From Synergistaceae bacterium (GTDB lineage: Bacteria; Synergistota; Synergistia; Synergistales; Aminobacteriaceae), in assembly GCA_017454625.1 (NCBI GenBank), contig JAFTCP010000130.1, positions 1-37,962 of the forward strand: DNA of 37,962 nucleotides, written 5' to 3'. The notes under the pieces were generated by a model, which saw nothing but the letters and a program-made list of their open reading frames with translations, was not told the origin of the DNA and searched no databases. Shown here in pieces: positions 13,982 through 24,645 of this stretch. Position 1 is the stretch's first letter, and every line of letters begins with the position of its first letter. A program made the translations under genes and the position numbers.

Positions 13982-14866
13982 CTAGTCCATAATAAGACAA
14001 AATGCCCTTAATTTTCCGCTGCGAGACTTGTAATTACGTCTGATTTCCTCATCAGACGGCGTAATCGGATGACGTGTTAAGATTTTCCCCTTGTTATTCT
14101 TCTGCCATTCACGGAAGGATAATTTTACGAGCCTATCTTCAAGTGAATGATACGACACGAATATAATCAACGCTTCTTTGTGAGCAACTTTCGGAAGAGT
14201 TTCGAGTAAATTTTCGAGTTCGCCTGTTTCGTTGTTGACGTAAATTCTGAGGGCCTGAAAAACTCTTCGTGCCGGATGACTTCCCATTTTCCGTTGAACT
14301 GGTTGAGGCAGAGTTTCACGGATTAGCTTTACTAAGTCCGAAGTTGTTTCAATGGGATATTTCGCTCGTTTAATCGCTGAAGCTATCAAGTTCGCAAATC
14401 TCTCTTCGCCGTAATCCCGAAAAATTTTCGTGAGCGTCTTTTCGTCGCAAGTCTTCAACACTTCGGCAGCCGTCAATAAATTTTCATCGTCGGGGTTCAT
14501 TCGCATATCGAGTTTCCCGTCGTTCTGGAACGAAAAGCCGCGTTCTGGGAGTGATAATTGCATATTCGACACGCCCAAATCGAAAACGTAAACGTCAAAG
14601 TTATTAATATCAGGGATTTCATCAAGACTTCCGAAGTTTTTATGTAACGCCTGAAATCTTGATGAATAATCTTGAAGTCTTTCACGTGAAAAATTTATTG
14701 CCTGTGTATCTCTGTCAATTCCCAAAACGAAACTTTCAGGAAAATTTTGCAAGAAAGCCTCAGAATATCCGCCAAGTCCTAAAGTTCCGTCAAGAATTTT
14801 TGCGTGCGAAGAATGAGATTTTATGAGAGTGATTACTTCGTTTAACATTACGGGTTCATGATGCAT
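13982..14866 (-). CDS. rsmH: 16S rRNA (cytosine(1402)-N(4))-methyltransferase RsmH
   Basis: A 294-residue SAM-dependent methyltransferase. Motif I is ILDGTLGLGGYSEAFL near residue 26. Further signatures are VFDLGVSNMQLSLPERGFSF, LDMRMNPDD, ATSAIKRAKYPIETT-like helices and ARRVFQALRIYVNNE. The ending ..SRSGKLRAFCLI is typical of RsmH. It modifies C1402 in the ribosomal P-site region. The start MHHEPVMLNEVI has a GGAG site upstream. It is the first gene of the minus-strand dcw block; mraZ, usually found just upstream, is missing, and a divergent promoter region separates it from the three-gene module at 15031. Confidence 0.97.
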   Translation of the reverse strand: MHHEPVMLNEVITLIKSHSSHAKILDGTLGLGGYSEAFLQNFPESFVLGIDRDTQAINFSRERLQDYSSRFQALHKNFGSLDEIPDINNFDVYVFDLGVSNMQLSLPERGFSFQNDGKLDMRMNPDDENLLTAAEVLKTCDEKTLTKIFRDYGEERFANLIASAIKRAKYPIETTSDLVKLIRETLPQPVQRKMGSHPARRVFQALRIYVNNETGELENLLETLPKVAHKEALIIFVSYHSLEDRLVKLSFREWQKNNKGKILTRHPITPSDEEIRRNYKSRSGKLRAFCLIMD

Positions 14867-15030: not shown

Positions 15031-15933
15031 ATGCCGGAGAAAAATATACCCGATGTAATTCAAGGCATTCTCGAGAAGAACAAGGGATTTGCAAACGTAA
15101 AAAATTTACCGTCAATGCTCAGTGCTGAACTCAGACAGGAACTTGGCATTAAGAACGGATTAACCGGCCCGGTGATCCGCAAGAAACTTGAGCCGTTTTT
15201 AGAGGACAGATTTATTTTTCATAAGAAGGGATTATTGCTTTATATTTTAATTCCCTGTGAGCCTTCTGAACTCGTAATCTCGTTGATAAATTCGAGCAAG
15301 TCTTCAACTCCGAAGATGATCGCTAAAAATCTTCCGTTCACGAAAAAAGAGTTTCTTGACATCGTGAATAACTTAATCGAAGAAGGGCGCGCAAAATTAG
15401 TTCTGACAGAAACACTCGATGTAAAAATTGTCTTCATTGATAAGCCGGCGAAGAAAGAATTTACAGCAGCAGCATTAGCGAGAACGTCAACAGCAGCAAA
15501 TGAAACAATTACGATTGACAAGTCGGGGCAAAAAGAAAGTCCATCACAAGCAATTGCAGAGACATCATCAGCCACACCAATTATGTCGACTGAAACGACA
15601 GCTTCAGCAAGCGCATCAAGCTCACCAGCAATGACACCTTCAGGAAAGCCTGAGGAGGAAGGAGGCAAGAGGGATTACGGTCCCGGAAAATTTCGTGAGG
15701 CTTTTTATGCGTTGGATAAAGGGAGAATCTTTGTAAGGATTTGCGACTTAAGACGTGAATTGAATTGGCCGCGTGAAGTCTTCGATGAGATGTTGAGGAA
15801 ATTACGCGACGAGGAAGTAATCCAGCTTCACGAGGGCGACGCTTCGACAATGACACCTGAAGAGAATAACGATTGCTTCACCGACGAAAATAATATCAGA
15901 ATGGGAACGGTAACTTGGAATGCCGGAAAATAA
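15031..15933 (+). CDS. Unrecognised protein with winged-helix-like N- and C-terminal domains
   Basis: 300 residues, function not recognised. Residues 1 to about 150 are charged and helical and look like two small winged-helix units (VIQGILEKNKGFANVKNLPS; LINSSKSSTPKMIAKNLPFT). Residues about 150-210 are a low-complexity linker rich in S, T and A. Residues about 215-275 again resemble a winged helix (RICDLRRELNWPREVFDEML, then a beta wing IQLHEGDASTMT), ending with FTDENNIRMGTVTWN. No transmembrane segment or enzyme motif is seen. The stop overlaps the ATPase start by 14 nt, so the two are translated together and probably act together, this protein perhaps binding DNA or serving as an adaptor (inference). 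Confidence 0.7.
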   Translation: MPEKNIPDVIQGILEKNKGFANVKNLPSMLSAELRQELGIKNGLTGPVIRKKLEPFLEDRFIFHKKGLLLYILIPCEPSELVISLINSSKSSTPKMIAKNLPFTKKEFLDIVNNLIEEGRAKLVLTETLDVKIVFIDKPAKKEFTAAALARTSTAANETITIDKSGQKESPSQAIAETSSATPIMSTETTASASASSSPAMTPSGKPEEEGGKRDYGPGKFREAFYALDKGRIFVRICDLRRELNWPREVFDEMLRKLRDEEVIQLHEGDASTMTPEENNDCFTDENNIRMGTVTWNAGK

Positions 15934-17884
15934 TGACTTAATCCTCGAAGAATTACGCAAAAATAATCCGTTCAGGTCTCGCATATCACCGACACCGTTT
16001 GAGAATACAAATCCTGATATTCAGCAGCTTAATCGTGATGTCTCAGAAGAGATCGAACAGCTTTTGCGCGATAAACGCCGGAAGCCTTCCGAGCCTGCCG
16101 CAGGATTGATAATCGGTGAAACTGGTTCGGGAAAAACTCACATGCTCACAAGACTTTTACGTCGAATGAAAAGTTACGGATGGCCCGCAATCTTCGTGAG
16201 TGTCAGAACTTTCAGAAATCCCGACAGCGTCATGCACGATTTGTTATCAGAAATTTTCATCAGTCTTGCGCATAAAAATTTCAGCAAGCGTTCACAGTTC
16301 GATATGTTGTTGAGCGAGATGATGAGCATTTACAGCGAGCGAAGAAAAATTGACGGTTTCACAGGAATTGACAAGATTGACACGAAAATTTATCTCATGC
16401 GGGATATGCCGGGAATTGACCGAGTATTTCTAAGATGCTTGATGAGTTATTTGCGGGCAGCTGACGAGACAGAAAAATTATATCTGCTTGAATGGCTCCG
16501 TGAGGGACTTGATGAAGATGATTCTTTGCGCTTCGGGCTTCCTGCTAGAGATACTTCTTCAATGAATAACGCTGAACGTGAAAACGATGCGGAGAAAATT
16601 ATTATCTCAATCGGCAGAGTTTTGGGTTATGCAAAAGTTCCAATGATAATTTGTTTCGACGAGTTAGACGCAATGCCGCGCGAGACGGAGTTAATTCATG
16701 CTTGGGGAAGAGTTATAAGCCTTCTCGTTAATAACGTCTCAGGTGTCCTGCCTTTAGCCTTCATGAAGCCTGAAACTTGGAACGAAGTATTTTTTCCTGT
16801 TTTAGATCATGCTGTAACTCATCGTTTAGGGAACACGATTATAATGCATCCATGTTCAACAGAGCAGGCACAACAGCTTGTAAGAGAGCGTTTGAAGTCA
16901 GCATTCCCGCATAACAGCAAGGAAGAACTTGACGAAAAATATAATTGGCTTATGAAAAGGTTAGAGCCGAAATTGACAAAGGGAACTTCTCCTAGAAATG
17001 TCCTGAAGCTCGCTGATTCCGTCATAACTCAAGGTGATAATATCCCGCGCGTTGAGAAAAATGAAATTGATAACACAATCAGGAACACTTACGATGAAAT
17101 TTACAGTAAAATCGAAGCAGAAGCCTCCTCATGGCCTCCGAACGCAGATCATCTCACGCTTGCTCTTGAAGTCTGGCTGAAATCTCACGAAGGCTTTGAA
17201 TTATCTCAAGGCGACGGAAAAACCGTAAAATTTCTCGGTTCGTATTCTGGCAAAAAATTTATGTTCATCATTGCGGCCTCAAAAAGTCATTTCGTCATAT
17301 CAGCGGGCTTAAAGCACGGAATTTCTTTCTTGAACGCTTACCCTGAAGGCTTATGCTTTTACATCTCCGAACGAAAATTATTCAAGAAGACTTATAAGCA
17401 GGCTAATAATTATCTTCGTGAATTTGAAAGTCTCGGAGGAAAAGCTGTTTTGTTAGACGAAGAGTCAAGAGTTTCATGGTATGCATTTATGGACTTGATT
17501 AATCAGATTGACGGCGGAAATGTCAGCATTTTTACATCATCAGGAAATAAACAGGCTTCACGTGAGGATTTAAGAGAGTTGGCCGGAAGTTTAAGACTGC
17601 TTGATATTGACTTTAAGAAATCCGGGCATACTGCAAAAAATCCTCCTGTTAATCACAATGTAAATTTAGACTTTGACGAGAAAAATTTGATGCGGGAACT
17701 CATGAAAATATTAGACACTTCACCGATGAAATTATTAGCCATCGATAAAACTTTGAATATTTTAGCCCAGCGGGGAATTTTCGTTGAGAGTGAAAAATTT
17801 TTATCATTCGCAAAAAATCATCGCGAGGATTTCAGGATATTCCAAACTAAGACGGAAACGCTTATAGGCTTAACCGAAAAATGA
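15920..17884 (+). CDS. P-loop ATPase of unknown function (AAA/STAND-like)
   Basis: 654 residues. It opens with NNPFRSRISPTPFENTNPDI. Walker A is GETGSGKT (66-73), and Walker B is MIICFDELDA (242-251) with acidic FDELD, so the ATPase core spans about 30-370. The region resembles Cdc6/ORC-like and phage-defence ATPases such as BrxD, but no specific family is claimed. The C-terminal half (about 410-560) is a mixed alpha/beta domain (KTVKFLGSYSGKKFMFIIAA, LCFYISERKLFKKTYKQANN) of unknown fold, then a helical tail. It overlaps the nuclease gene by 4 nt (ATGA) and the upstream gene by 14 nt, so the three form one translational unit. It may power or gate the nuclease; this is inference. Confidence 0.78.
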   Translation: MPENNDLILEELRKNNPFRSRISPTPFENTNPDIQQLNRDVSEEIEQLLRDKRRKPSEPAAGLIIGETGSGKTHMLTRLLRRMKSYGWPAIFVSVRTFRNPDSVMHDLLSEIFISLAHKNFSKRSQFDMLLSEMMSIYSERRKIDGFTGIDKIDTKIYLMRDMPGIDRVFLRCLMSYLRAADETEKLYLLEWLREGLDEDDSLRFGLPARDTSSMNNAERENDAEKIIISIGRVLGYAKVPMIICFDELDAMPRETELIHAWGRVISLLVNNVSGVLPLAFMKPETWNEVFFPVLDHAVTHRLGNTIIMHPCSTEQAQQLVRERLKSAFPHNSKEELDEKYNWLMKRLEPKLTKGTSPRNVLKLADSVITQGDNIPRVEKNEIDNTIRNTYDEIYSKIEAEASSWPPNADHLTLALEVWLKSHEGFELSQGDGKTVKFLGSYSGKKFMFIIAASKSHFVISAGLKHGISFLNAYPEGLCFYISERKLFKKTYKQANNYLREFESLGGKAVLLDEESRVSWYAFMDLINQIDGGNVSIFTSSGNKQASREDLRELAGSLRLLDIDFKKSGHTAKNPPVNHNVNLDFDEKNLMRELMKILDTSPMKLLAIDKTLNILAQRGIFVESEKFLSFAKNHREDFRIFQTKTETLIGLTEK

Positions 17885-18837
17885 ATAGAAAATGTTTCGT
17901 CAATGTCAGCGATCTAGCAATCTGTCAGAGATGTCCGGCCCTCTTTGCTATGAAAATTCATGAAGGCGATAAATCCGTTTGGAGCATCGGCATTCAGGGA
18001 AACGGTCAGGCTTACGGCTCAATCTTCCATAAGAATATTGCTCAGAAATTTTTCAAGGCCGCAGCTCATCCCGAAAATCCCTTACACCTGAAAATTGCGC
18101 GCTCTATCTCGTCCGAAACTCTTGAAGAAACAGTGCGGAAAAATATTTTTATGCCGTTCATAGCTGAAAACTCGCAAAAATTCTCTTCGGGCCAATTGTT
18201 GGCTATGGCTAAAGGCGTGAAAATTTGGGTAAAAGCTATGTCCGACTATTTTATTAATATCCCGTCGCTGATTAATGACCCCGTGAAAAATATGCGGACT
18301 GTCTTCAAGATGCCTGAGCAAAAATTACGGAGCTTTTACGATTTAGAAGGCGGTAGATTAGTTGTTGTCGGATGTTATGATGCTCTAATGTTTAATCCTG
18401 ACAGGGCCGAAGCAAGATTAATCGAGTTCAAGGGTTACAGCAAATCTGATATTACTGTCCCATTGTCGCAAAGTTTAATTTATGCCTGGTTAATCTATAA
18501 AATTACGGGAATAATTCCTTCGGTCGAAATTATTTATCTCGATGACGCTGACAAAGCCCCCGATGCATTCAGCTCTAAAAACGTAAGCGCTATGATTAAA
18601 TCAGGATTGCCGGAACTGTTTCATGCTGCCTTCGATATAATAACGTTAAGGAGGTATCCGAAAATTTTACACGACAAAAAATTATGTGAAATCTGCAAAT
18701 ATAATCAACGATGCAAATTTGAAATTGATAAAATATTCATGCGTAAAAAACGCTTGGGAGCTTCATTAATCAGCGTATTGGCGTTTATGTTTGCGGCTGT
18801 CTTGACTATTTCGCAAGTATTTTTTATCTTAGCATGA
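17881..18837 (+). CDS. Cas4/RecB-like PD-(D/E)XK Fe-S nuclease with a pilin-like C-terminal membrane tail
   Basis: 318 residues. The Cas4/AddB-type pattern is complete: N-terminal cysteines in DLAICQRCPALF (C15, C18), a motif-0 His in GSIFHKNIAQ (H50), GCYDAL (D167), IEFKGY (E182, K184), the QSLIYAW motif (Q197, Y201) and C-terminal LCEICKYNQRC (C269, C272, C278). The cysteines would hold a 4Fe-4S cluster and the D/E/K the metal. From M287 the frame continues as KKRLGASLISVLAFMF..., a near copy of the leader of the pseudopilin at 19002, giving a terminal hydrophobic helix. The native nuclease probably ended near residue 286, and the tail arose by fusion to a duplicated pilin 5' end. Substrate and role are unknown; the ATPase at 15920 is the likely partner. 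Confidence 0.82.
   Translation: MNRKCFVNVSDLAICQRCPALFAMKIHEGDKSVWSIGIQGNGQAYGSIFHKNIAQKFFKAAAHPENPLHLKIARSISSETLEETVRKNIFMPFIAENSQKFSSGQLLAMAKGVKIWVKAMSDYFINIPSLINDPVKNMRTVFKMPEQKLRSFYDLEGGRLVVVGCYDALMFNPDRAEARLIEFKGYSKSDITVPLSQSLIYAWLIYKITGIIPSVEIIYLDDADKAPDAFSSKNVSAMIKSGLPELFHAAFDIITLRRYPKILHDKKLCEICKYNQRCKFEIDKIFMRKKRLGASLISVLAFMFAAVLTISQVFFILA
18739..18837 (+). repeat. First copy of the pseudopilin 5' end, fused in frame to the nuclease
   Basis: ATG-CGT-AAA-AAA-CGC begins a stretch encoding MRKKRLGASLISVLAF..., matching MNKKRPGASLMNVLVF... of the intact gene at 19002, with most differences at third codon positions or conservative residues, through the SQVFF segment. It lacks its own ribosome site and is read as the end of the nuclease. 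Confidence 0.75.
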
Positions 18838-18888
18838 GACTTCTTCAGCAAAAAAAATTTTTCATGTAAAACCAGAGGAGATAATCTT

Positions 18889-19005
18889 ATGAATGAAAAA
18901 ATTTTGTTAATTAGCGTCTTGATTATTTCTCAGGCATTTTTATTTGAGCATGAGACTTCTTCAACGAGAAAATTTCATGCCAACCGAGAGGAGATAATCT
19001 CATGA
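18889..19005 (+). pseudogene. 38-codon remnant, second copy of the pseudopilin 5' end
   Basis: An open frame starting MNEKILLISVLIISQAF, preceded by AGAGGAGATAATCTT, the same leader that precedes the intact gene. An internal deletion removed the GASL part of the pilin leader. Its TGA overlaps the ATG of the pseudopilin at 19002 (TCATGA). The flanking GAGACTTCTTCA and GAGGAGATAATCT blocks occur twice (18836-18893 and 18950-19000), showing a tandem duplication of about 115 nt. Confidence 0.7.
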
Positions 19006-19514
19006 ATAAAAAACGTCCTGGAGCTTCATTAATGAACGTCCTGGTCTTTATGCTTGCGGCAATGATGATCACGTCTCAGGTCTTTTTTTTCGCTGAGAAT
19101 GAAAGCGTTTCCAGCAAGGAAGCCCGCGCAATGATGCAAGTTAGAATGAGGCTCGAAAATCTTGTGCAAACAGCTAAGGGAAGTTTAACGCCGAATACTC
19201 AGCCGCGAACAGCAGACTATAAAACTTTTCATGCAAATATAAAGCTGAATGGTTTTCCCCAAAATTATTGGGACAAGGAATATCACGTTTGCATTTATGA
19301 TTTGGATTATACGCTTCAAGAACGGCCTGTGCTGAATGGCTTTAAGGAGTCAGAATGGGAAAATATCCCCGTTTATGAAAGAATTTTCCCGCCTATGGGA
19401 GCAGATTATTATCTCATCAGGGCTTATACAACTTTACCCGCCGGAAATTCTTTGATGCTTCAGGTTCTTATTCATAACGGCAAAACTTTAGCTTACGAGG
19501 AAATTTGGTATTAG
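19002..19514 (+). CDS. Type IV pilin-like/pseudopilin protein without the conserved Glu5
   Basis: 170 residues. A short basic leader ends at Gly (MNKKRPG), followed by ASLMNVLVFMLAAMMITSQ, a typical class III signal and N-terminal helix; prepilin peptidase would cut after Gly7. Position +5 of the mature protein is Asn instead of Glu, as in minor tip-type pseudopilins such as GspK. The remainder is a soluble beta-rich domain with aromatic residues (PQNYWDKEYHVCIYDLDYTL) and no recognisable family. It is followed 4 nt later by the PilM/PilN-like gene, so it probably belongs to a secretion or pilus assembly system whose other parts lie elsewhere. The ribosome site is GAGAGGAGA. Confidence 0.72.
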   Translation: MNKKRPGASLMNVLVFMLAAMMITSQVFFFAENESVSSKEARAMMQVRMRLENLVQTAKGSLTPNTQPRTADYKTFHANIKLNGFPQNYWDKEYHVCIYDLDYTLQERPVLNGFKESEWENIPVYERIFPPMGADYYLIRAYTTLPAGNSLMLQVLIHNGKTLAYEEIWY

Positions 19515-19518
19515 CAAA

Positions 19519-20907
19519 ATGAAAATTTCATTTGACCATAACAAGAAAAAGAAAATATCGGGCAATTCAGCGGGCTTAGCAATTCACGACAACTTTTTAC
19601 ACTTTATAGAGCTTGACGAGGAAAATCAACCGCTCAAAAAAGTTCAAGTTCCTCTTCCTGAAGGCTGTATCGTTAATAATGCAATCAAGAATTTTGACAT
19701 GCTCAAGGCAGCCTTTGAAGAAATCCGCAGGCAGACGGGCCGCATTCGTGAACCAGTCAGCATTGGCCTTCCTGCTGGTGATGCCGTAATAAGATTATTA
19801 TCATTTCCGAGAATGAGCATTGATGATGTTCGAAGCACGCTTGATCTCAGCTTTGAGGAACATTTTACTTTCTTGAGAATGGATTCAGTCTTTGATGTCA
19901 TCATCGTAAAAACTCCTAATGATAATATTGAACGCGATGAAATCACAGTATTAGCCGCCGCCGCAAAAATCGCAATAATCGAGAAAATTTTGAACATTGC
20001 AAGAGAGGCCGGACTTCCTGCGGGATCAATTGAGCCAATAAATTTTGCGACAGTCCGCGCAATCCCCGAAGCAAGATCAGGTTTAAGCATCTTCGCAGAA
20101 CCTAATTCTATCATCACGATTTATGACGGTGCCGGAATTTTCTTCAGGTCAGCAAATAACACTAACGGTATTCAGGACATCTTGAATACTATGCAATATA
20201 TCAATACGACTTATAAGACAGTTAGAGTTGAGAGGATTATACTTGCTGATTTGAATTTCCAGTTAAGCACAAATTCTTCAATGCAGATCGTGAACATAAC
20301 GGATTCTTATGCTTCGGCTTTGGGGTGTGCAAATCATAATCTTTCAGGTTTCTCCTCGCTCGACTTAAGGCCCGCTGAATATGTAGAGCTTGAACGCCGC
20401 AGATATTCATTTAATGCTAACAGGTTAATTTTCTGGGGGCTTCTCTCGAGTTTCCTGCTGTTATCAATCGCAACAATATTTTTCGCTGTAACACGAATTA
20501 ATCACCTTAAACTCGAAATTGATTATATGCGCGCGAACGTCAACGATTTAACCCGACAAAGAATTGAGTTGACAGAATCAAACTCGAAACTTGAACGCCA
20601 GAAAGATAAAACCGAGAAAATTTTAGAGTTCCTGAAGACGGATATTCCTGTGCTTGAAATTATGAATGCGCTGGAGGCTAACTCGGCGACAGGAATAAAA
20701 TTTGACACAGCAACTTATTCACGAGTTGTAACGGGAGGTTTCAGCGTTGTGATTGACGGCAAAGCTGCGGATGATAAATCGATTCTCCAAATGACAGAGG
20801 GCCTGAAACAAAACGACTTGTTCAAGAGTGTAATGCTTCCGGTCTCACAGAAGGCTCAAACTCAGCAGATAATTTTCAAACTTGTATTGACTGTGAGGGA
20901 TATATAA
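19519..20907 (+). CDS. PilM/PilN-like (GspL-like) fusion assembly protein
   Basis: 462 residues. The first 290 or so form an actin-like PilM/GspL-type domain (SAGLAIHDNFLHFIELDEEN; SIGLPAGDAVIRLLSFP; DVRSTLDLSFEEHFTFLR, similar to the PilM segment that follows the membrane-binding part). The nucleotide loops are degenerate, as in GspL. A transmembrane helix follows (LIFWGLLSSFLLLSIATIFF, about 305-325), then a coiled coil (INHLKLEIDYMRANVNDLTR...) and a ferredoxin-like PilN/GspL C-terminal domain. It probably links a cytoplasmic ATPase to pseudopilins. PilM and PilN are separate genes in type IV pilus systems, so the fused state is closer to GspL. It lies directly between two pseudopilin genes and abuts the next start with no gap. 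Confidence 0.75.
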   Translation: MKISFDHNKKKKISGNSAGLAIHDNFLHFIELDEENQPLKKVQVPLPEGCIVNNAIKNFDMLKAAFEEIRRQTGRIREPVSIGLPAGDAVIRLLSFPRMSIDDVRSTLDLSFEEHFTFLRMDSVFDVIIVKTPNDNIERDEITVLAAAAKIAIIEKILNIAREAGLPAGSIEPINFATVRAIPEARSGLSIFAEPNSIITIYDGAGIFFRSANNTNGIQDILNTMQYINTTYKTVRVERIILADLNFQLSTNSSMQIVNITDSYASALGCANHNLSGFSSLDLRPAEYVELERRRYSFNANRLIFWGLLSSFLLLSIATIFFAVTRINHLKLEIDYMRANVNDLTRQRIELTESNSKLERQKDKTEKILEFLKTDIPVLEIMNALEANSATGIKFDTATYSRVVTGGFSVVIDGKAADDKSILQMTEGLKQNDLFKSVMLPVSQKAQTQQIIFKLVLTVRDI

Positions 20908-21372
20908 ATGAAACGACGTGCTTTTACTCTTATAGAGCTTCTTACAGCGATGATTATAATTATAATTCTCGGAAGTGTTGCGACCCTGAATATCAACGCT
21001 TTTAGGCAAACTCCCAAACGTGAGGCAGAAAAAATTATGTCAAAGTTCCATAGATTAACTCAAGAAGCCGACAGAAAACACAAGAATTTTGCGATAAAGT
21101 TTACGGATATCAACAGGTATTATACGTCTTTCGAAATTTATGATAATTCGTTGGCAAGTAGATATTTTCGTGAGAATTTTGAGATAAGCTCTGGAATTAA
21201 AATTTTATCGAATATGAATAACATTACTTATGGAGCTTCAAACAATACATTTGATAAAAATTTTACGCTCACGGTTGCTAATAATAACGAAACCGATAAA
21301 TATTACGTGATATTTTACGAGGGGAGAGTGAGAATTTCATCAGATACCAACCCGCTAAATGACGACGACTAA
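20908..21372 (+). CDS. GspH/FimT-like pseudopilin
   Basis: 154 residues. The prepilin motif is RRAFTLIELLTAMIIIIILG: cleavage would fall after Ala, before FTLIE, with the conserved Glu5 present (Ala instead of the usual Gly at -1). The hydrophobic helix and a GspH-like soluble domain follow, with the pattern AFRQTPKREAEKIMSKFHRL, then a beta-rich region ending in an acidic tail (NPLNDDD). The start codon directly follows the upstream stop, so it is co-translated with the PilM/PilN-like protein. It is probably a minor pseudopilin of the same secretion or pilus apparatus; no GspD, GspE or GspF gene is in the window. Confidence 0.82.
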   Translation: MKRRAFTLIELLTAMIIIIILGSVATLNINAFRQTPKREAEKIMSKFHRLTQEADRKHKNFAIKFTDINRYYTSFEIYDNSLASRYFRENFEISSGIKILSNMNNITYGASNNTFDKNFTLTVANNNETDKYYVIFYEGRVRISSDTNPLNDDD

Positions 21373-21413: not shown

Positions 21414-21422
21414 TGCTATAAT
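21414..21422 (+). promoter_or_regulatory. Extended -10 promoter of mltG
   Basis: TGCTATAAT is a perfect extended -10 element. Transcription would start near 21429, so the in-frame ATG at 21421 would lie upstream of the RNA start. This favours the TTG at 21451 as the mltG start. No good -35 is visible, as is common for extended -10 promoters. Confidence 0.5.
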
Positions 21423-21450
21423 GCCAAAAACTAACAGGATGTGCTTAAAC

Positions 21451-22548
21451 TTGCAAAGAAATTCTACACTCAAACCAAATCGCAAAAAACGAAAGCGAAA
21501 ATCTTTACTCGGCTTAATTCTCTTTCTCCTGTTCATCATTGCTTCAGGAGCAGGAGCTTTCACGGCTTATCGTCTCAAAGTCCCGGGCAATTTCTGGGAA
21601 CGCGTAATTCCAATTCCCGACGGCGACAAAGTCAGCGTTGTAATCGAACAGGGAATGACGGCTTCACAGGCAGCACGAGCTTTTGAAGTTTACGGAGCTT
21701 TAGTTACGGGTTCACCTCAGGAATTATCAAAATGGATGGTAAAATTCGGCATTGACAAGAGAATTAGAGCAGGACATTACAGCGTCGTCCCTTCGGATGC
21801 TTGGAACTTGGCCAGACAATTACGCTTCGTTAAGCCCGCATTGTTGAAAGCTCAAATTTTGCCGGGAATTGACGTTTTCATGTTAATAGATTCACTCATG
21901 AGCCAAGATAAAGAATTAACGCGACAAAATATAACACGTTCTATTTTGAATGATGCGAATTATCCTCCGAAGATGCTGGAGATATTAAAAACTCTTCCCA
22001 ACGATGAATATACCCGCGCGGCTTTCCTGATGCCTGAGACTTTTATGCTTGTTGACAGGACAGCTGACGAGATTATCAACACTTCGGCTTCTGCATGGTG
22101 GAAACATTGGGGAGATTTAATCACCGAACATAAATTAACGTCGAAAGATATTCAGGACGCTTCGATTATTGCCTCAATGGTTGAGCGTGAAGTTTTGCAT
22201 GATGCCGAATGCCGGACCGTTGCCGGAGTAATTCACAATAGATTGCGCAAGAACATGAAGCTCCAGATTGACGCTACTGTTGTATATGCTTGGAGACTTA
22301 AAGGGAGAAAGTTAACGCGCGTCCTGTATAAGGATTTAGAGGTCGACTCGCCTTATAACACGTACAAAATTTCCGGACTTCCGCCAAGACCTATTTGTAT
22401 TCCTGGAATTGAAGCGTGGGGAGGAGCTTTAGATCCGGAAGATAACGAGTATTATTATTACGTCGCAGGAAAAGACGGCTATCATCATTTCGCGAAGACT
22501 AGCACCGAACATCAGCGAAATATTAGGGAAGTTCGTTCATCGAAATAA
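21451..22548 (+). CDS. mltG: Endolytic murein transglycosylase MltG (YceG-like)
   Basis: About 365 residues. A basic N-terminus and one transmembrane helix (LLGLILFLLFIIASGAGAF) precede a LysM-like region (VVIEQGMTASQAARAF) and the YceG catalytic domain. The domain shows IIASMVEREV with the catalytic Glu, VAGVIHNRL, MKLQIDATVVYAW, SPYNTYKISGLPPRPICIPG and a YYYYVAGKDGYHHFAKT ending. It cuts nascent glycan strands in the periplasm. The start is uncertain: ATGs at 21421 and 21439 are in frame, but an extended -10 overlaps the first and AGGAT about 10 nt before TTG 21451 fits best. A near-copy of the amidohydrolase operator lies inside the gene at 21926-21947. ftsK follows after 18 nt. Confidence 0.93.
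   Translation: MQRNSTLKPNRKKRKRKSLLGLILFLLFIIASGAGAFTAYRLKVPGNFWERVIPIPDGDKVSVVIEQGMTASQAARAFEVYGALVTGSPQELSKWMVKFGIDKRIRAGHYSVVPSDAWNLARQLRFVKPALLKAQILPGIDVFMLIDSLMSQDKELTRQNITRSILNDANYPPKMLEILKTLPNDEYTRAAFLMPETFMLVDRTADEIINTSASAWWKHWGDLITEHKLTSKDIQDASIIASMVEREVLHDAECRTVAGVIHNRLRKNMKLQIDATVVYAWRLKGRKLTRVLYKDLEVDSPYNTYKISGLPPRPICIPGIEAWGGALDPEDNEYYYYVAGKDGYHHFAKTSTEHQRNIREVRSSK
21926..21947 (+). repeat. Near-identical copy of the 5739-5760 palindrome inside mltG
   Basis: This 22-nt stretch matches the reverse complement of the palindrome before the amidohydrolase gene at 21 of 22 positions (one C for A). It is within the mltG reading frame. Whether it is a second binding site or a chance match is not decided. 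Confidence 0.45.
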
Positions 22549-22566: not shown

Positions 22567-24645
22567 TTGAGCAGGAGACGCAGAGAGAACAAAACCAGCT
22601 GGGGAGAATTAATCTTAGTCGCAATCTTCATAGCCTGTATCTACATGATATTAGCACTCTTCGACAGCTCATTAACAGGAGAAGGAGGCCGAGAACTGGG
22701 AAAATATTTACGCAACTCATGGGGAGGAGCCGTAATTATTCTCTTGTTATTCGGGCTTTATCTGAGCGCGGCAGCTTTTATGAAGCGTCGAATTCCGAAG
22801 GTCAGGCGGCAGATTTTGGGGACAATTCAGCTCTACATTTCCTTTGCGTTTATGCTGGGATTATTGCGCGAGGCCGGTTGGAACTCCGAAATGACTTTAG
22901 CTCAGCCGGGAAGTTTTGGGCTTGGCCTGGCGAAATTTTTCGTCCTCAACGTAGGAACGTTTATAGCTCTCCTGCTCGTAATTCTCTCGTTCATTCTCAC
23001 CGCTTATTTATTCGGGTTAAAGATTTTGAGCGTTGAGCTTCCTTCGTTGCCTTCGTTCAAGTTCAGGCGCAAAAAGAAATCTCAAGATTACGACGACGAA
23101 CCCCGCAAGCCTAAACGAAAACGAGAACAACCGGAGAAGCCTAATGTTACTGCTCCAAAATTGGCCGGAGATTATGAGTTGACACCTGAGGAGATTGCTT
23201 TTATGAAGGATATTCCTGCTCCAATCCTCAGAGAAGACAGATACGCTTACGATTACGGCTATGATTATCAGAATGAGCCTGAGGACGTAAATATTATTCC
23301 GGCATGTTCGAATACGATTGAAATTATCGACAACATTTTAGCGGCTATCGACTCCGGCGAACTCGATGCACCAGCCAAGAGACGCACGATTAATCCGCCG
23401 AGACAGAAAAAAATCCGCCGTCCTCTTCCGGATTTAACAGCTCCAGACGAGAAAGATATTGAAGCCGCCGAGAAGCCCATTAACACGAAATCCGCTTTTC
23501 CTCCGGTTGAAGTTTTCGGGCCTTCGCCAAAGCCTAAGGATGATGAGACTAGCAAAAATTCTTCGGACAATCAAGGTGAAATAATAATCTCGACGCTGAA
23601 AAATTTTCACGTCAACGCCTCAATCGCAAACGTCGTAAAAGGTCCGTCGGTAATTCAATATCAGCTTGAGCTTTCGCCTGGAACAAAAGTTAGTCAGCTT
23701 GAAGCCCTCGACAACGAACTCACAATCGCGCTTGCATCAATGCCCGTTCGTATCGAAGCTCCGATTTTGGGGACGCATTACGCCGGAGTTGAAGTTCCCA
23801 GCAGCGACAGGAAAATTATAACTTTGGGAAATATTTTAGAGGATAGCGAGTTCAAGACTACACGTTTAAGATTGCCGCTTCCTTTGGGAGTTCAGATTGA
23901 CGGGAAAGTTTTAGTGCAGGGGCTTGATGAAATTCTTCATCTCCTAATCGCCGGGAATACAGGCTCAGGCCGAAGCATGTTCGTAGATTCATGTATTCTC
24001 AGTATGTGTTCATTCAGAACGCCCGAAGAGTTGAAGCTGATTTTGATTGACCCCAGACATGTTGAGTTTGCGCCGTATGAAGGACTTCCGCATTTGTTGA
24101 GTTCGCCGATTTTCGAGGCATCGGAAGCGTTGAAGGCTCTCAAGTGGGCATTCAGCGAGATGGAAGCTAGAACGTCGGAATTTGCCAGAACTCACGTGAA
24201 AAATTTAGCCTCGTACAATCGCAAGCTCCCGAAAAAAGACAGACTCCCTGAAATCGTAATAATTATCGATGAACTCGCTGACTTGATTTATTCCGGTGAA
24301 AGTGAGATTGAAAGTTTGCTCGGAAAATTATCACAGAAGGCTGGAGCCGCAGGAATTCACTTGATGTTAACTGTTCAGAAGCCATCAGCTGAGGTTGTTA
24401 CGACGTTGATTAAGGCGAATATTCCAGCAAGAGCCGCATTCACACTTGCGAACGAAAACGACGCGAAGAACTTCGGAGTTCCTGACGCTATGAAGCTCAC
24501 AGGTAAAGGAGATTTACTCTTCACAAGTACGAGTTTCCCGCAATCAATAAGACTTCAAGCGCCATTCATAAACGAGGAGAAAATTTCGGAGTTCGTCGGT
24601 TATATGTCAGAGAGTTTTACGAAGAGCGAGTATATCAAGTTTTGA
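22567..24645 (+). CDS. ftsK: Divergent FtsK/SpoIIIE-type DNA translocase, Walker A Lys replaced, no gamma domain
   Basis: 692 residues from a TTG start with AGGGGGA 10 nt upstream. Four hydrophobic segments occupy the first 165 or so residues, followed by a charged linker (about 165-330). The alpha/beta motor has PSVIQYQLELSPGTKVSQLE, LPLPLGVQIDGKVL, the P-loop, LKLILIDPRHVEF, IIIDELADLI and AGAAGIHLMLTVQKP. The Walker A reads GNTGSGRS (463-470): the catalytic Lys is Arg469 (CGA). Other conserved spots also deviate (DPRHVE for DPKRVE, TVQKP for ATQRP). The protein ends soon after the motor, so the C-terminal gamma winged helix that reads KOPS is missing. It could be a dedicated divergent paralogue or an impaired translocase. 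A partial copy of its 3' end follows. Confidence 0.88.
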   Translation: MSRRRRENKTSWGELILVAIFIACIYMILALFDSSLTGEGGRELGKYLRNSWGGAVIILLLFGLYLSAAAFMKRRIPKVRRQILGTIQLYISFAFMLGLLREAGWNSEMTLAQPGSFGLGLAKFFVLNVGTFIALLLVILSFILTAYLFGLKILSVELPSLPSFKFRRKKKSQDYDDEPRKPKRKREQPEKPNVTAPKLAGDYELTPEEIAFMKDIPAPILREDRYAYDYGYDYQNEPEDVNIIPACSNTIEIIDNILAAIDSGELDAPAKRRTINPPRQKKIRRPLPDLTAPDEKDIEAAEKPINTKSAFPPVEVFGPSPKPKDDETSKNSSDNQGEIIISTLKNFHVNASIANVVKGPSVIQYQLELSPGTKVSQLEALDNELTIALASMPVRIEAPILGTHYAGVEVPSSDRKIITLGNILEDSEFKTTRLRLPLPLGVQIDGKVLVQGLDEILHLLIAGNTGSGRSMFVDSCILSMCSFRTPEELKLILIDPRHVEFAPYEGLPHLLSSPIFEASEALKALKWAFSEMEARTSEFARTHVKNLASYNRKLPKKDRLPEIVIIIDELADLIYSGESEIESLLGKLSQKAGAAGIHLMLTVQKPSAEVVTTLIKANIPARAAFTLANENDAKNFGVPDAMKLTGKGDLLFTSTSFPQSIRLQAPFINEEKISEFVGYMSESFTKSEYIKF

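What the first reader, a model, noticed from the sequence alone, without database searches (positions are those of the whole stretch)
15031..18837. Uncharacterised winged-helix/ATPase/Cas4-like nuclease module
Three genes overlap by 14 and 4 nt and encode a winged-helix protein, a 654-residue P-loop ATPase with intact Walker A and B, and a nuclease with all Cas4/AddB motifs and an Fe-S cysteine set. ATPase plus nuclease plus DNA-binding adaptor is the logic of many DNA-repair, DNA-uptake and phage-defence systems (compare AddAB, HerA-NurA, BREX accessory ATPases), but I cannot match this trio to a named one. It sits next to core division genes and upstream of pilus-like genes, with no mobile-element signs, so a housekeeping role (for example processing DNA taken up by a pilus) is as likely as defence.
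Basis: partly seen in the sequence, partly recalled or inferred. Interest (0 to 1): 0.72.

Follow-up and report, generated by a model that had tools for sequence, protein, structure and literature searches.

The report
Motor-less DNA-cutting module joined to pilin
A three-gene set for binding and cutting DNA, related to a predicted anti-virus system but without its DNA-pumping motor, is kept by almost every species of one genus of ruminant-gut bacteria and is usually welded in one reading frame to a pilus protein, which suggests that it acts on DNA at the cell membrane.

Summary
The trio is real and travels together. It encodes a wHTH-like protein, an Orc/Cdc6-type AAA+ ATPase with a C-terminal winged helix, and a Cas4/AddB-type PD-(D/E)XK nuclease with a full cysteine set. 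It is in 38 of 43 sampled genomes of the window's genus (ruminant-gut Synergistaceae).

In other genera and phyla the nuclease continues into an FtsK translocase. That architecture matches the predicted 'HerA/FtsK capture' anti-invader systems (Rakesh, Aravind & Krishnan 2024, PMC10853773).

The window's genus has lost that motor. The trio always sits directly upstream of a type IV prepilin gene (31 of 31 loci with sequence there), and in 26 of 37 species the nuclease frame runs straight into the prepilin. Eight of these species have no start codon of their own for the pilin. The window species is a secondary split: a 5' duplication left the nuclease with a prepilin-like membrane tail.

Best guess: a capture-type nuclease module re-anchored to the inner membrane and pilus, acting on DNA there; restriction of incoming DNA is likelier than processing it for competence. 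Function is untested.

Noticed alongside: this genus's FtsK has lost its gamma domain and usually a Walker motif, and XerC/D-class recombinases appear absent.

The parts
15031..15933 (+). Putative (tandem) winged-helix DNA-binding protein, 300 aa; about 235-260 aa in relatives, with a low-complexity insert in this species
   Evidence: ORF; alignment A3 of 27 relatives, mean column identity 44%, C-terminal block FVRIxxLRxxLxWPRxxFD nearly invariant; no Pfam match above cut-off
15920..17884 (+). Orc/Cdc6-type AAA+ ATPase, 654 aa, with a middle alpha/beta domain (catalytic acids of the REase fold not evident) and a C-terminal winged helix
   Evidence: AAA_22 3e-8; AlphaFold pLDDT 84; Foldseek top hits ORC/Cdc6
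16115..16141 (+). Walker A GETGSGKTH
   Evidence: alignment columns, K and T invariant in 26 of 26
16646..16675 (+). Walker B region IICFDELDAM; catalytic E is Q in 16 of 26 relatives
17144..17455 (+). Middle alpha-beta-beta-beta-alpha-beta domain (residues 409-512), read here as an inactive REase-like domain
   Evidence: DSSP of model; no conserved D...(D/E)xK at the expected strands; fold identity inferred, not tested separately
17678..17872 (+). C-terminal winged helix of the ATPase (residues 587-651)
   Evidence: DSSP H587-600, H608-617, H624-633, E638-642, E647-651
17881..18837 (+). Cas4/AddB-type PD-(D/E)XK nuclease with invariant cysteines C15, C18, C269, C272, C278
   Evidence: PDDEXK_1 above cut-off; Cas4 TIGR00372 weak; invariant catalytic set; Foldseek ACE1/Dna2/AddAB for the model of a fused relative
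18730..18834 (+). Prepilin-like tail of the nuclease (FMRKKRLG/ASLISVLAFMFAAVLTISQVFFILA): class III signal motif and membrane segment left by the duplication
   Evidence: direct repeat with 19000-19091; aligned to the prepilin part of fused relatives
18843..18900 (+). Second duplicated piece (58 nt, 78% to 18956-19013): ribosome-binding site and start region of the pilin gene
19002..19514 (+). Type IV (minor) prepilin-like protein, 170 aa; fused to the nuclease in most relatives
19519..20907 (+). PilM-PilN fusion
   Evidence: pilM TIGR01175 1.3e-7, PilN weak; separate pilM and pilN genes in most other genera
20908..21372 (+). Minor pseudopilin (GspH/ComGD-like, N_methyl)
21421..22548 (+). MltG-like endolytic transglycosylase (assigned by reading the sequence)
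   Evidence: syntenic in relatives
22567..24645 (+). Only FtsK of this genome (FtsK alpha plus motor, no gamma); Walker A K changed to R (GNTGSGRS)
13982..14866 (-). rsmH (mraW), divergent neighbour of the trio in about half of the genus

Best explanation
This is a motor-less, vertically kept derivative of the predicted Orc/Cdc6-HerA/FtsK 'capture' systems, coupled to a type IV pilus operon. SHOWN: the three proteins, their conserved order, the missing FtsK domain, the fixed linkage to a prepilin gene and the frequent in-frame nuclease-prepilin fusion. INFERRED: the wHTH protein and the Orc-like ATPase form a DNA-bound complex; the Cas4/AddB-type Fe-S nuclease degrades DNA; its prepilin segment inserts in the inner membrane. 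The prepilin peptidase then either cuts at the conserved Gly/Ala, so that one ORF yields a cytoplasmic nuclease and a pilin, or leaves part of the nuclease tethered. The cutter is thereby supplied where the pilus machine and incoming DNA meet the membrane, and its likeliest job is to intercept foreign DNA there. Restriction rather than processing for transformation is my guess, not a result. The window species makes the two as separate proteins, but its nuclease keeps the membrane tail.
For: Trio in 38 of 43 genomes of the genus and in termite-gut Synergistaceae and Planctomycetaceae, partly in a Methanomicrobiales archaeon and Deltaproteobacteria. Relatives outside the genus carry nuclease-FtsK-alpha-FtsK in one ORF. 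Domain plan matches PMC10853773 section 22. ORC/Cdc6 fold and Cas4/AddB fold. Directly followed by the prepilin gene in 31 of 31 loci, even in 9 that are away from rsmH. Fused in 26 of 37, with no ATG/GTG/TTG between the last Cys and the cleavage site in 8 species; Gly at -1 in nearly all fused sequences, Ala in two. dN/dS 0.07-0.31 in fused nucleases. PilD, PilB/PilT-type ATPases and a ComEC-type protein present in the window genome. Module distances track ftsI (Mantel r 0.78-0.85 for ATPase and nuclease).
Against: Fused and split forms interchange at least 8 times on the nuclease tree, so fusion itself may be near-neutral. In one clade the fused frame keeps an SD-like GGAGG before an in-frame GTG/ATG, so separate pilin synthesis remains possible. 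Walker B Glu is Gln in 16 of 26 ATPases. Five genomes of the genus lack the trio. No experimental datum ties any member of this class to phage, plasmid or competence phenotypes in what I read. Cleavage and membrane insertion are not tested. The pilin part of the model has low confidence.
Confidence: 0.42

Rival explanations
1. Ordinary cytoplasmic capture-type defence module whose gene happens to abut the pilin gene; the fusion is a neutral by-product of a 4-nt gene overlap and has no functional meaning.
For: Fused and split states interchange at least 8 times; in split species the nuclease stop often overlaps the pilin ATG (ATGA), so one indel toggles the state; relatives lie in ordinary chromosomal contexts without pilus genes.
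Against: Linkage to the pilin is kept in 31 of 31 loci, including those away from rsmH; 8 species cannot start the pilin on its own with a standard start codon; the motor that defines the capture mechanism is gone; the nuclease remains under purifying selection.
Confidence: 0.3
2. Processing nuclease for DNA uptake by the pilus (competence): the module degrades one strand or trims incoming DNA for recombination.
For: Same operon as PilM/PilN and minor pilins; PilB/PilT-type ATPases, PilD and a ComEC-family protein in the genome.
Against: ComEC and pilus genes are equally present in genera and species without the trio; the nearest relatives carry a DNA pump and resemble predicted anti-invader systems, not uptake systems.
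Confidence: 0.17
3. Domesticated chromosome-maintenance module: it deals with trapped or dimeric chromosomes at the septum in a genus that has dismantled FtsK-XerCD dimer resolution.
For: Often co-operonic with ftsK and next to division genes; FtsK gamma absent in 43 of 43 genomes of the genus but present in 33 of 40 of other genera; FtsK Walker motifs changed in most species; no XerC/D-strength recombinase in the genus.
Against: Members without the trio (e.g. G024, G019, G097) have lost gamma and strong Xer matches as well; trio plus pilin is sometimes away from ftsK (L080, L094); no fork- or dimer-specific feature seen.
Confidence: 0.08

Closest known systems
Orc/Cdc6-HerA/FtsK 'capture' systems (predicted; Rakesh, Aravind & Krishnan 2024, PMC10853773)
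   Same: Orc/Cdc6 AAA+ with an extra domain before its C-terminal wHTH; REase-fold nuclease; separate wHTH protein; in relatives an FtsK motor with FtsK-alpha
   Different: Window genus has no HerA/FtsK domain in the module; the Cas4/AddB-type nuclease may not be one of the two REase families named there; chromosomally fixed, joined to a prepilin and pilus operon
Cas4 / AddB / Dna2 Fe-S PD-(D/E)XK nucleases, including Argonaute-associated Cas4 family protein ACE1
   Same: Catalytic H, D, ExK, QxxxY and a cysteine set with N-terminal and three C-terminal positions; Foldseek top hits
   Different: No cas genes and no helicase domain seen beside it; C-terminal prepilin or FtsK fusion
HerA-NurA end-resection complex
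   Same: Pairing of a HerA/FtsK pump with a nuclease (in relatives outside the genus)
   Different: Different nuclease family, Orc-like ATPase and wHTH added, pump missing in the window genus
BREX (BrxC, BrxD ATPases)
   Same: Orc/Cdc6-clade ATPase followed by wHTH
   Different: No PglZ, methyltransferase or BrxL in the window; no BREX model match
AddAB
   Same: AddB-type Fe-S nuclease domain
   Different: No UvrD-type helicase in the module

Membership tests
Orc/Cdc6-HerA/FtsK capture system | Orc/Cdc6 AAA+ ATPase | tested here: met
   Foldseek to ORC/Cdc6, prob 1.00, E down to 2.7e-5; intact Walker A
Orc/Cdc6-HerA/FtsK capture system | Inactive REase between AAA+ and C-terminal wHTH | tested here: inconclusive
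   alpha-beta-beta-beta-alpha-beta order and missing catalytic acids; domain not folded or searched on its own
Orc/Cdc6-HerA/FtsK capture system | C-terminal wHTH on the ATPase | tested here: met
   three helices and a two-stranded wing at 587-651
Orc/Cdc6-HerA/FtsK capture system | Active REase of one of two stated families | tested here: inconclusive
   active-site set intact, but the families in the paper were not available for comparison
Orc/Cdc6-HerA/FtsK capture system | HerA/FtsK translocase | tested here: not met
   absent from the trio in the window genus; met in relatives of other genera. The window module is therefore filed as a derivative, not a member
Orc/Cdc6-HerA/FtsK capture system | Separate wHTH protein | tested here: inconclusive
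   conserved co-encoded protein, found with the ATPase in other phyla; fold not predicted
Cas4/AddB-type Fe-S nuclease | PD-(D/E)XK catalytic residues | tested here: met
   H50, D167, E182-x-K184, Q197, Y201 invariant
Cas4/AddB-type Fe-S nuclease | Four-cysteine Fe-S set | tested here: met
   C15/C18, C269, C272, C278 invariant; the cluster itself is not testable here
CRISPR Cas4 | Passes curated Cas4 model; cas1-cas2 neighbours | tested here: not met
   TIGR00372 24 bits vs cut-off 65; no cas1/cas2 among the window genes scanned
AddAB | UvrD-type helicase subunits | tested here: not met
   none in the operon
HerA-NurA | NurA-family nuclease with HerA | tested here: not met
   no NurA match and no HerA beside it in the window genus
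BREX | BREX core proteins | tested here: not met
   PADLOC: only weak Avs2/mad8 and Cas4 matches
Type IV prepilin (tail and fusion partner) | Basic leader, G(-1), hydrophobic helix | tested here: met
   R289 and G291 invariant in the 16 fused sequences of A4; 56-residue helix H294-349 in the model
Type IV prepilin (tail and fusion partner) | Glu at +5 | tested here: not met
   position is mostly N or S; from my own knowledge some minor pilins also lack it
Type IV prepilin (tail and fusion partner) | Processing by the prepilin peptidase | not testable with these tools
   a PilD-family gene is present in the genome

The most novel reading that the evidence does not exclude
In this genus a Cas4-type nuclease is the leader peptide of a prepilin: one reading frame makes a DNA-cutting enzyme and a pilus subunit, which the prepilin peptidase separates at the membrane. 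A capture-type defence module has exchanged its own DNA pump for delivery by the pilus machine.
Probability: 0.25. Interest if true: 0.82.

Novelty: new variant of a known kind. Interest (0 to 1): 0.6.

Why it matters
[quoted passage not shown] This lineage offers a natural test of what the ATPase, wHTH and nuclease do without the motor. A nuclease translated as the N-terminal part of a prepilin is an unusual domain fusion for which I found no precedent, and it would link DNA degradation directly to the pilus. The parallel decay of FtsK and loss of Xer in the same genus raises the separate, testable question of how these bacteria resolve chromosome dimers.

Tried and rejected
Mobile or viral origin: no relative in viral contigs, none in plasmids, only weak fold matches to viral ATPases. 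CRISPR: Cas4 models below cut-off (weak). Sequence search of the PDB gave nothing useful for either protein. Tested whether the operon's FtsK descends from the module's FtsK: no, it groups with cellular FtsK and the module's FtsK is a separate clade. Tested whether the module replaces FtsK-XerCD: not supported as a strict replacement, because genus members without the trio also lack gamma and strong Xer matches. Defence-island neighbourhood outside the genus: neighbours with matches were housekeeping-like, e.g. GatB and MetRS, or unassigned. Literature searches for nuclease-prepilin fusions found none.
Full report
WHAT IS THERE. The window is one contig of a 2.47 Mb MAG. Close relatives are ruminant-gut MAGs named Synergistaceae, Synergistales or Fretibacterium.

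THE PROTEINS. The ATPase matches AAA_22 (3e-8) and KAP (1e-5). An AlphaFold model from 26 relatives (pLDDT 84) shows a AAA+ core, a middle alpha/beta domain (409-512 and following) and a C-terminal winged helix (587-651). Foldseek's best hits are ORC and Cdc6. Walker A is intact in 26 of 26; the Walker B Asp is invariant, while the Glu is Gln in 16 of 26, though not in the window. The middle domain has the strand order of the REase fold without its acids; I read it as an inactive REase, without a separate test. The nuclease has every AddB/Cas4 residue and five invariant cysteines. The model of a fused relative matches the Cas4-family protein ACE1, Dna2 and AddB. The first protein has no accepted family match and its wHTH label is inferred.

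DISTRIBUTION. In the first sample the ATPase is in 33 of 37 genomes of the genus; a 34th, G024, gave only a weak partial match that I do not count. Over 43 genomes the trio is in 38, counting G034, where only the ATPase end is on the contig. A scan of genome contigs found the ATPase in termite-gut Synergistaceae, Planctomycetaceae, a Methanomicrobiales archaeon, Deltaproteobacteria and more distant groups. Profiles built from the three families find the wHTH gene upstream, and the nuclease downstream where the contig allows, in many of these. Outside the genus the nuclease ORF is mostly 640-740 aa and its C-terminal half is FtsK-alpha plus FtsK. So the three genes do travel together, and the window genus has lost a motor.

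KNOWN CLASS. Rakesh, Aravind and Krishnan 2024 (PMC10853773) describe neighbourhoods with an Orc/Cdc6 ATPase, an inactive REase inserted before its C-terminal wHTH, an active REase, a HerA/FtsK (one set with FtsK-alpha) and a wHTH protein, and predict interception of invading DNA. A 2026 paper (Rakesh and Krishnan, PMC12839542) repeats the theme. The module outside the genus fits this plan. The window form fails the HerA/FtsK criterion and is a derivative.

THE PILIN. The last ~35 residues of the window nuclease repeat the start of the next gene. In relatives the same tail does not stop: the frame runs on into a full prepilin-like protein. Of 37 species examined, 26 are fused at this junction (one of these, G032, has a stop inside the nuclease) and 11 are split, mostly with a nuclease stop overlapping or close to the pilin ATG. 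In 8 fused species there is no ATG, GTG or TTG between the last cysteine and the expected cleavage site. In the others an in-frame start exists, and in one clade an SD-like GGAGG precedes it, so separate initiation is possible there. The residue at -1 is Gly, with Ala in two species. The states change at least 8 times on the tree, which is expected if a peptidase or internal initiation makes them equivalent, but also if fusion is neutral. The nuclease part of fused ORFs is under purifying selection (dN/dS 0.07-0.31). The window species looks like a resolved fusion: duplication gave the pilin its own ribosome-binding site and left a membrane segment on the nuclease.

LINKAGE. The prepilin gene directly follows the nuclease in 31 of 31 loci with sequence there. 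rsmH is the divergent neighbour in 17 of these; in 9 with at least 1 kb upstream it is not. Linkage to the pilin is thus stronger than linkage to division genes. G024, which lacks the trio, keeps the pilin-PilMN-pilin-MltG-FtsK operon with a normal pilin start. The nuclease tree makes the genus one clade whose sister is the genus g25, where the nuclease carries FtsK. Distances of ATPase and nuclease follow ftsI (Mantel r 0.78 and 0.85), consistent with mainly vertical descent.

MECHANISM. My best reading is a membrane- and pilus-delivered DNA-interception nuclease (confidence 0.42). Shown: parts, order, loss of motor, fusion, selection. Inferred: complex formation, membrane insertion, cleavage by PilD, and foreign DNA as the target. 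The main rival is an ordinary capture-type defence module with a meaningless fusion (0.3). Competence processing (0.17) and a chromosome-maintenance role (0.08) are less supported.

SIDE OBSERVATIONS. The genus's cellular FtsK lacks the gamma domain in 43 of 43 genomes (33 of 40 in other genera have it) and carries altered Walker A and/or B residues in most sequences. No Phage_integrase match in the genus exceeds about 103 bits, while 35 of 40 genomes of other genera have one with E of 6e-43 or better; 15 of 43 have none at 1e-10, including two genomes rated 100% complete. Members without the trio show the same losses, so a causal tie to the trio is not supported.

LIMITS. All or nearly all genomes of the genus are MAGs; absence in any one can be an assembly gap. 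Counts of species are of the genomes sampled here. No function of any part was tested.

Noticed in passing
window 22567-24645 and its orthologues in the genus: The only FtsK of the genome has Walker A K changed to R; in the genus FtsK gamma is absent in 43 of 43 genomes and 15 of 16 distinct sequences in the first set have a changed Walker A and/or B residue.
   Followed up: partly
whole genus of the window (G000-G036, G094-G099): No tyrosine recombinase of XerC/D strength was found, and 15 of 43 genomes have none at all at E<=1e-10, whereas nearly all other genera of the family have strong ones; chromosome dimer resolution may be lost or replaced.
   Followed up: partly
G104 and G114/G113 (other genera; L158, L192, L193, L208): A second group of the family lacks both FtsK gamma and strong Xer matches; G104 and G114 keep intact FtsK Walker motifs, and in G104 the module's FtsK half is a decayed remnant.
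   Followed up: partly
window 15920-17884 relatives (alignment A1): Catalytic Walker B Glu of the Orc-like ATPase is Gln in 16 of 26 species, which usually slows or stops ATP hydrolysis.
   Followed up: no
window 19519-20907: PilM and PilN are one ORF in this genus and in the sister genus g25, but separate genes in most other genera of the family.
   Followed up: no
L170 (G032) around 7328: In-frame stop/frameshift inside the nuclease, with the remainder of the nuclease still fused to the pilin; decay or sequencing error.
   Followed up: no
L209-L211, L218-L220 (G011, G010, G019): Long (1351-1502 aa) proteins with two FtsK/SpoIIIE domains, which look like type VII secretion EccC-type ATPases.
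   Followed up: no
L106, L110: In more distant relatives the Orc-like ATPase continues into a HerA-like domain in one ~1150-aa protein.
   Followed up: no
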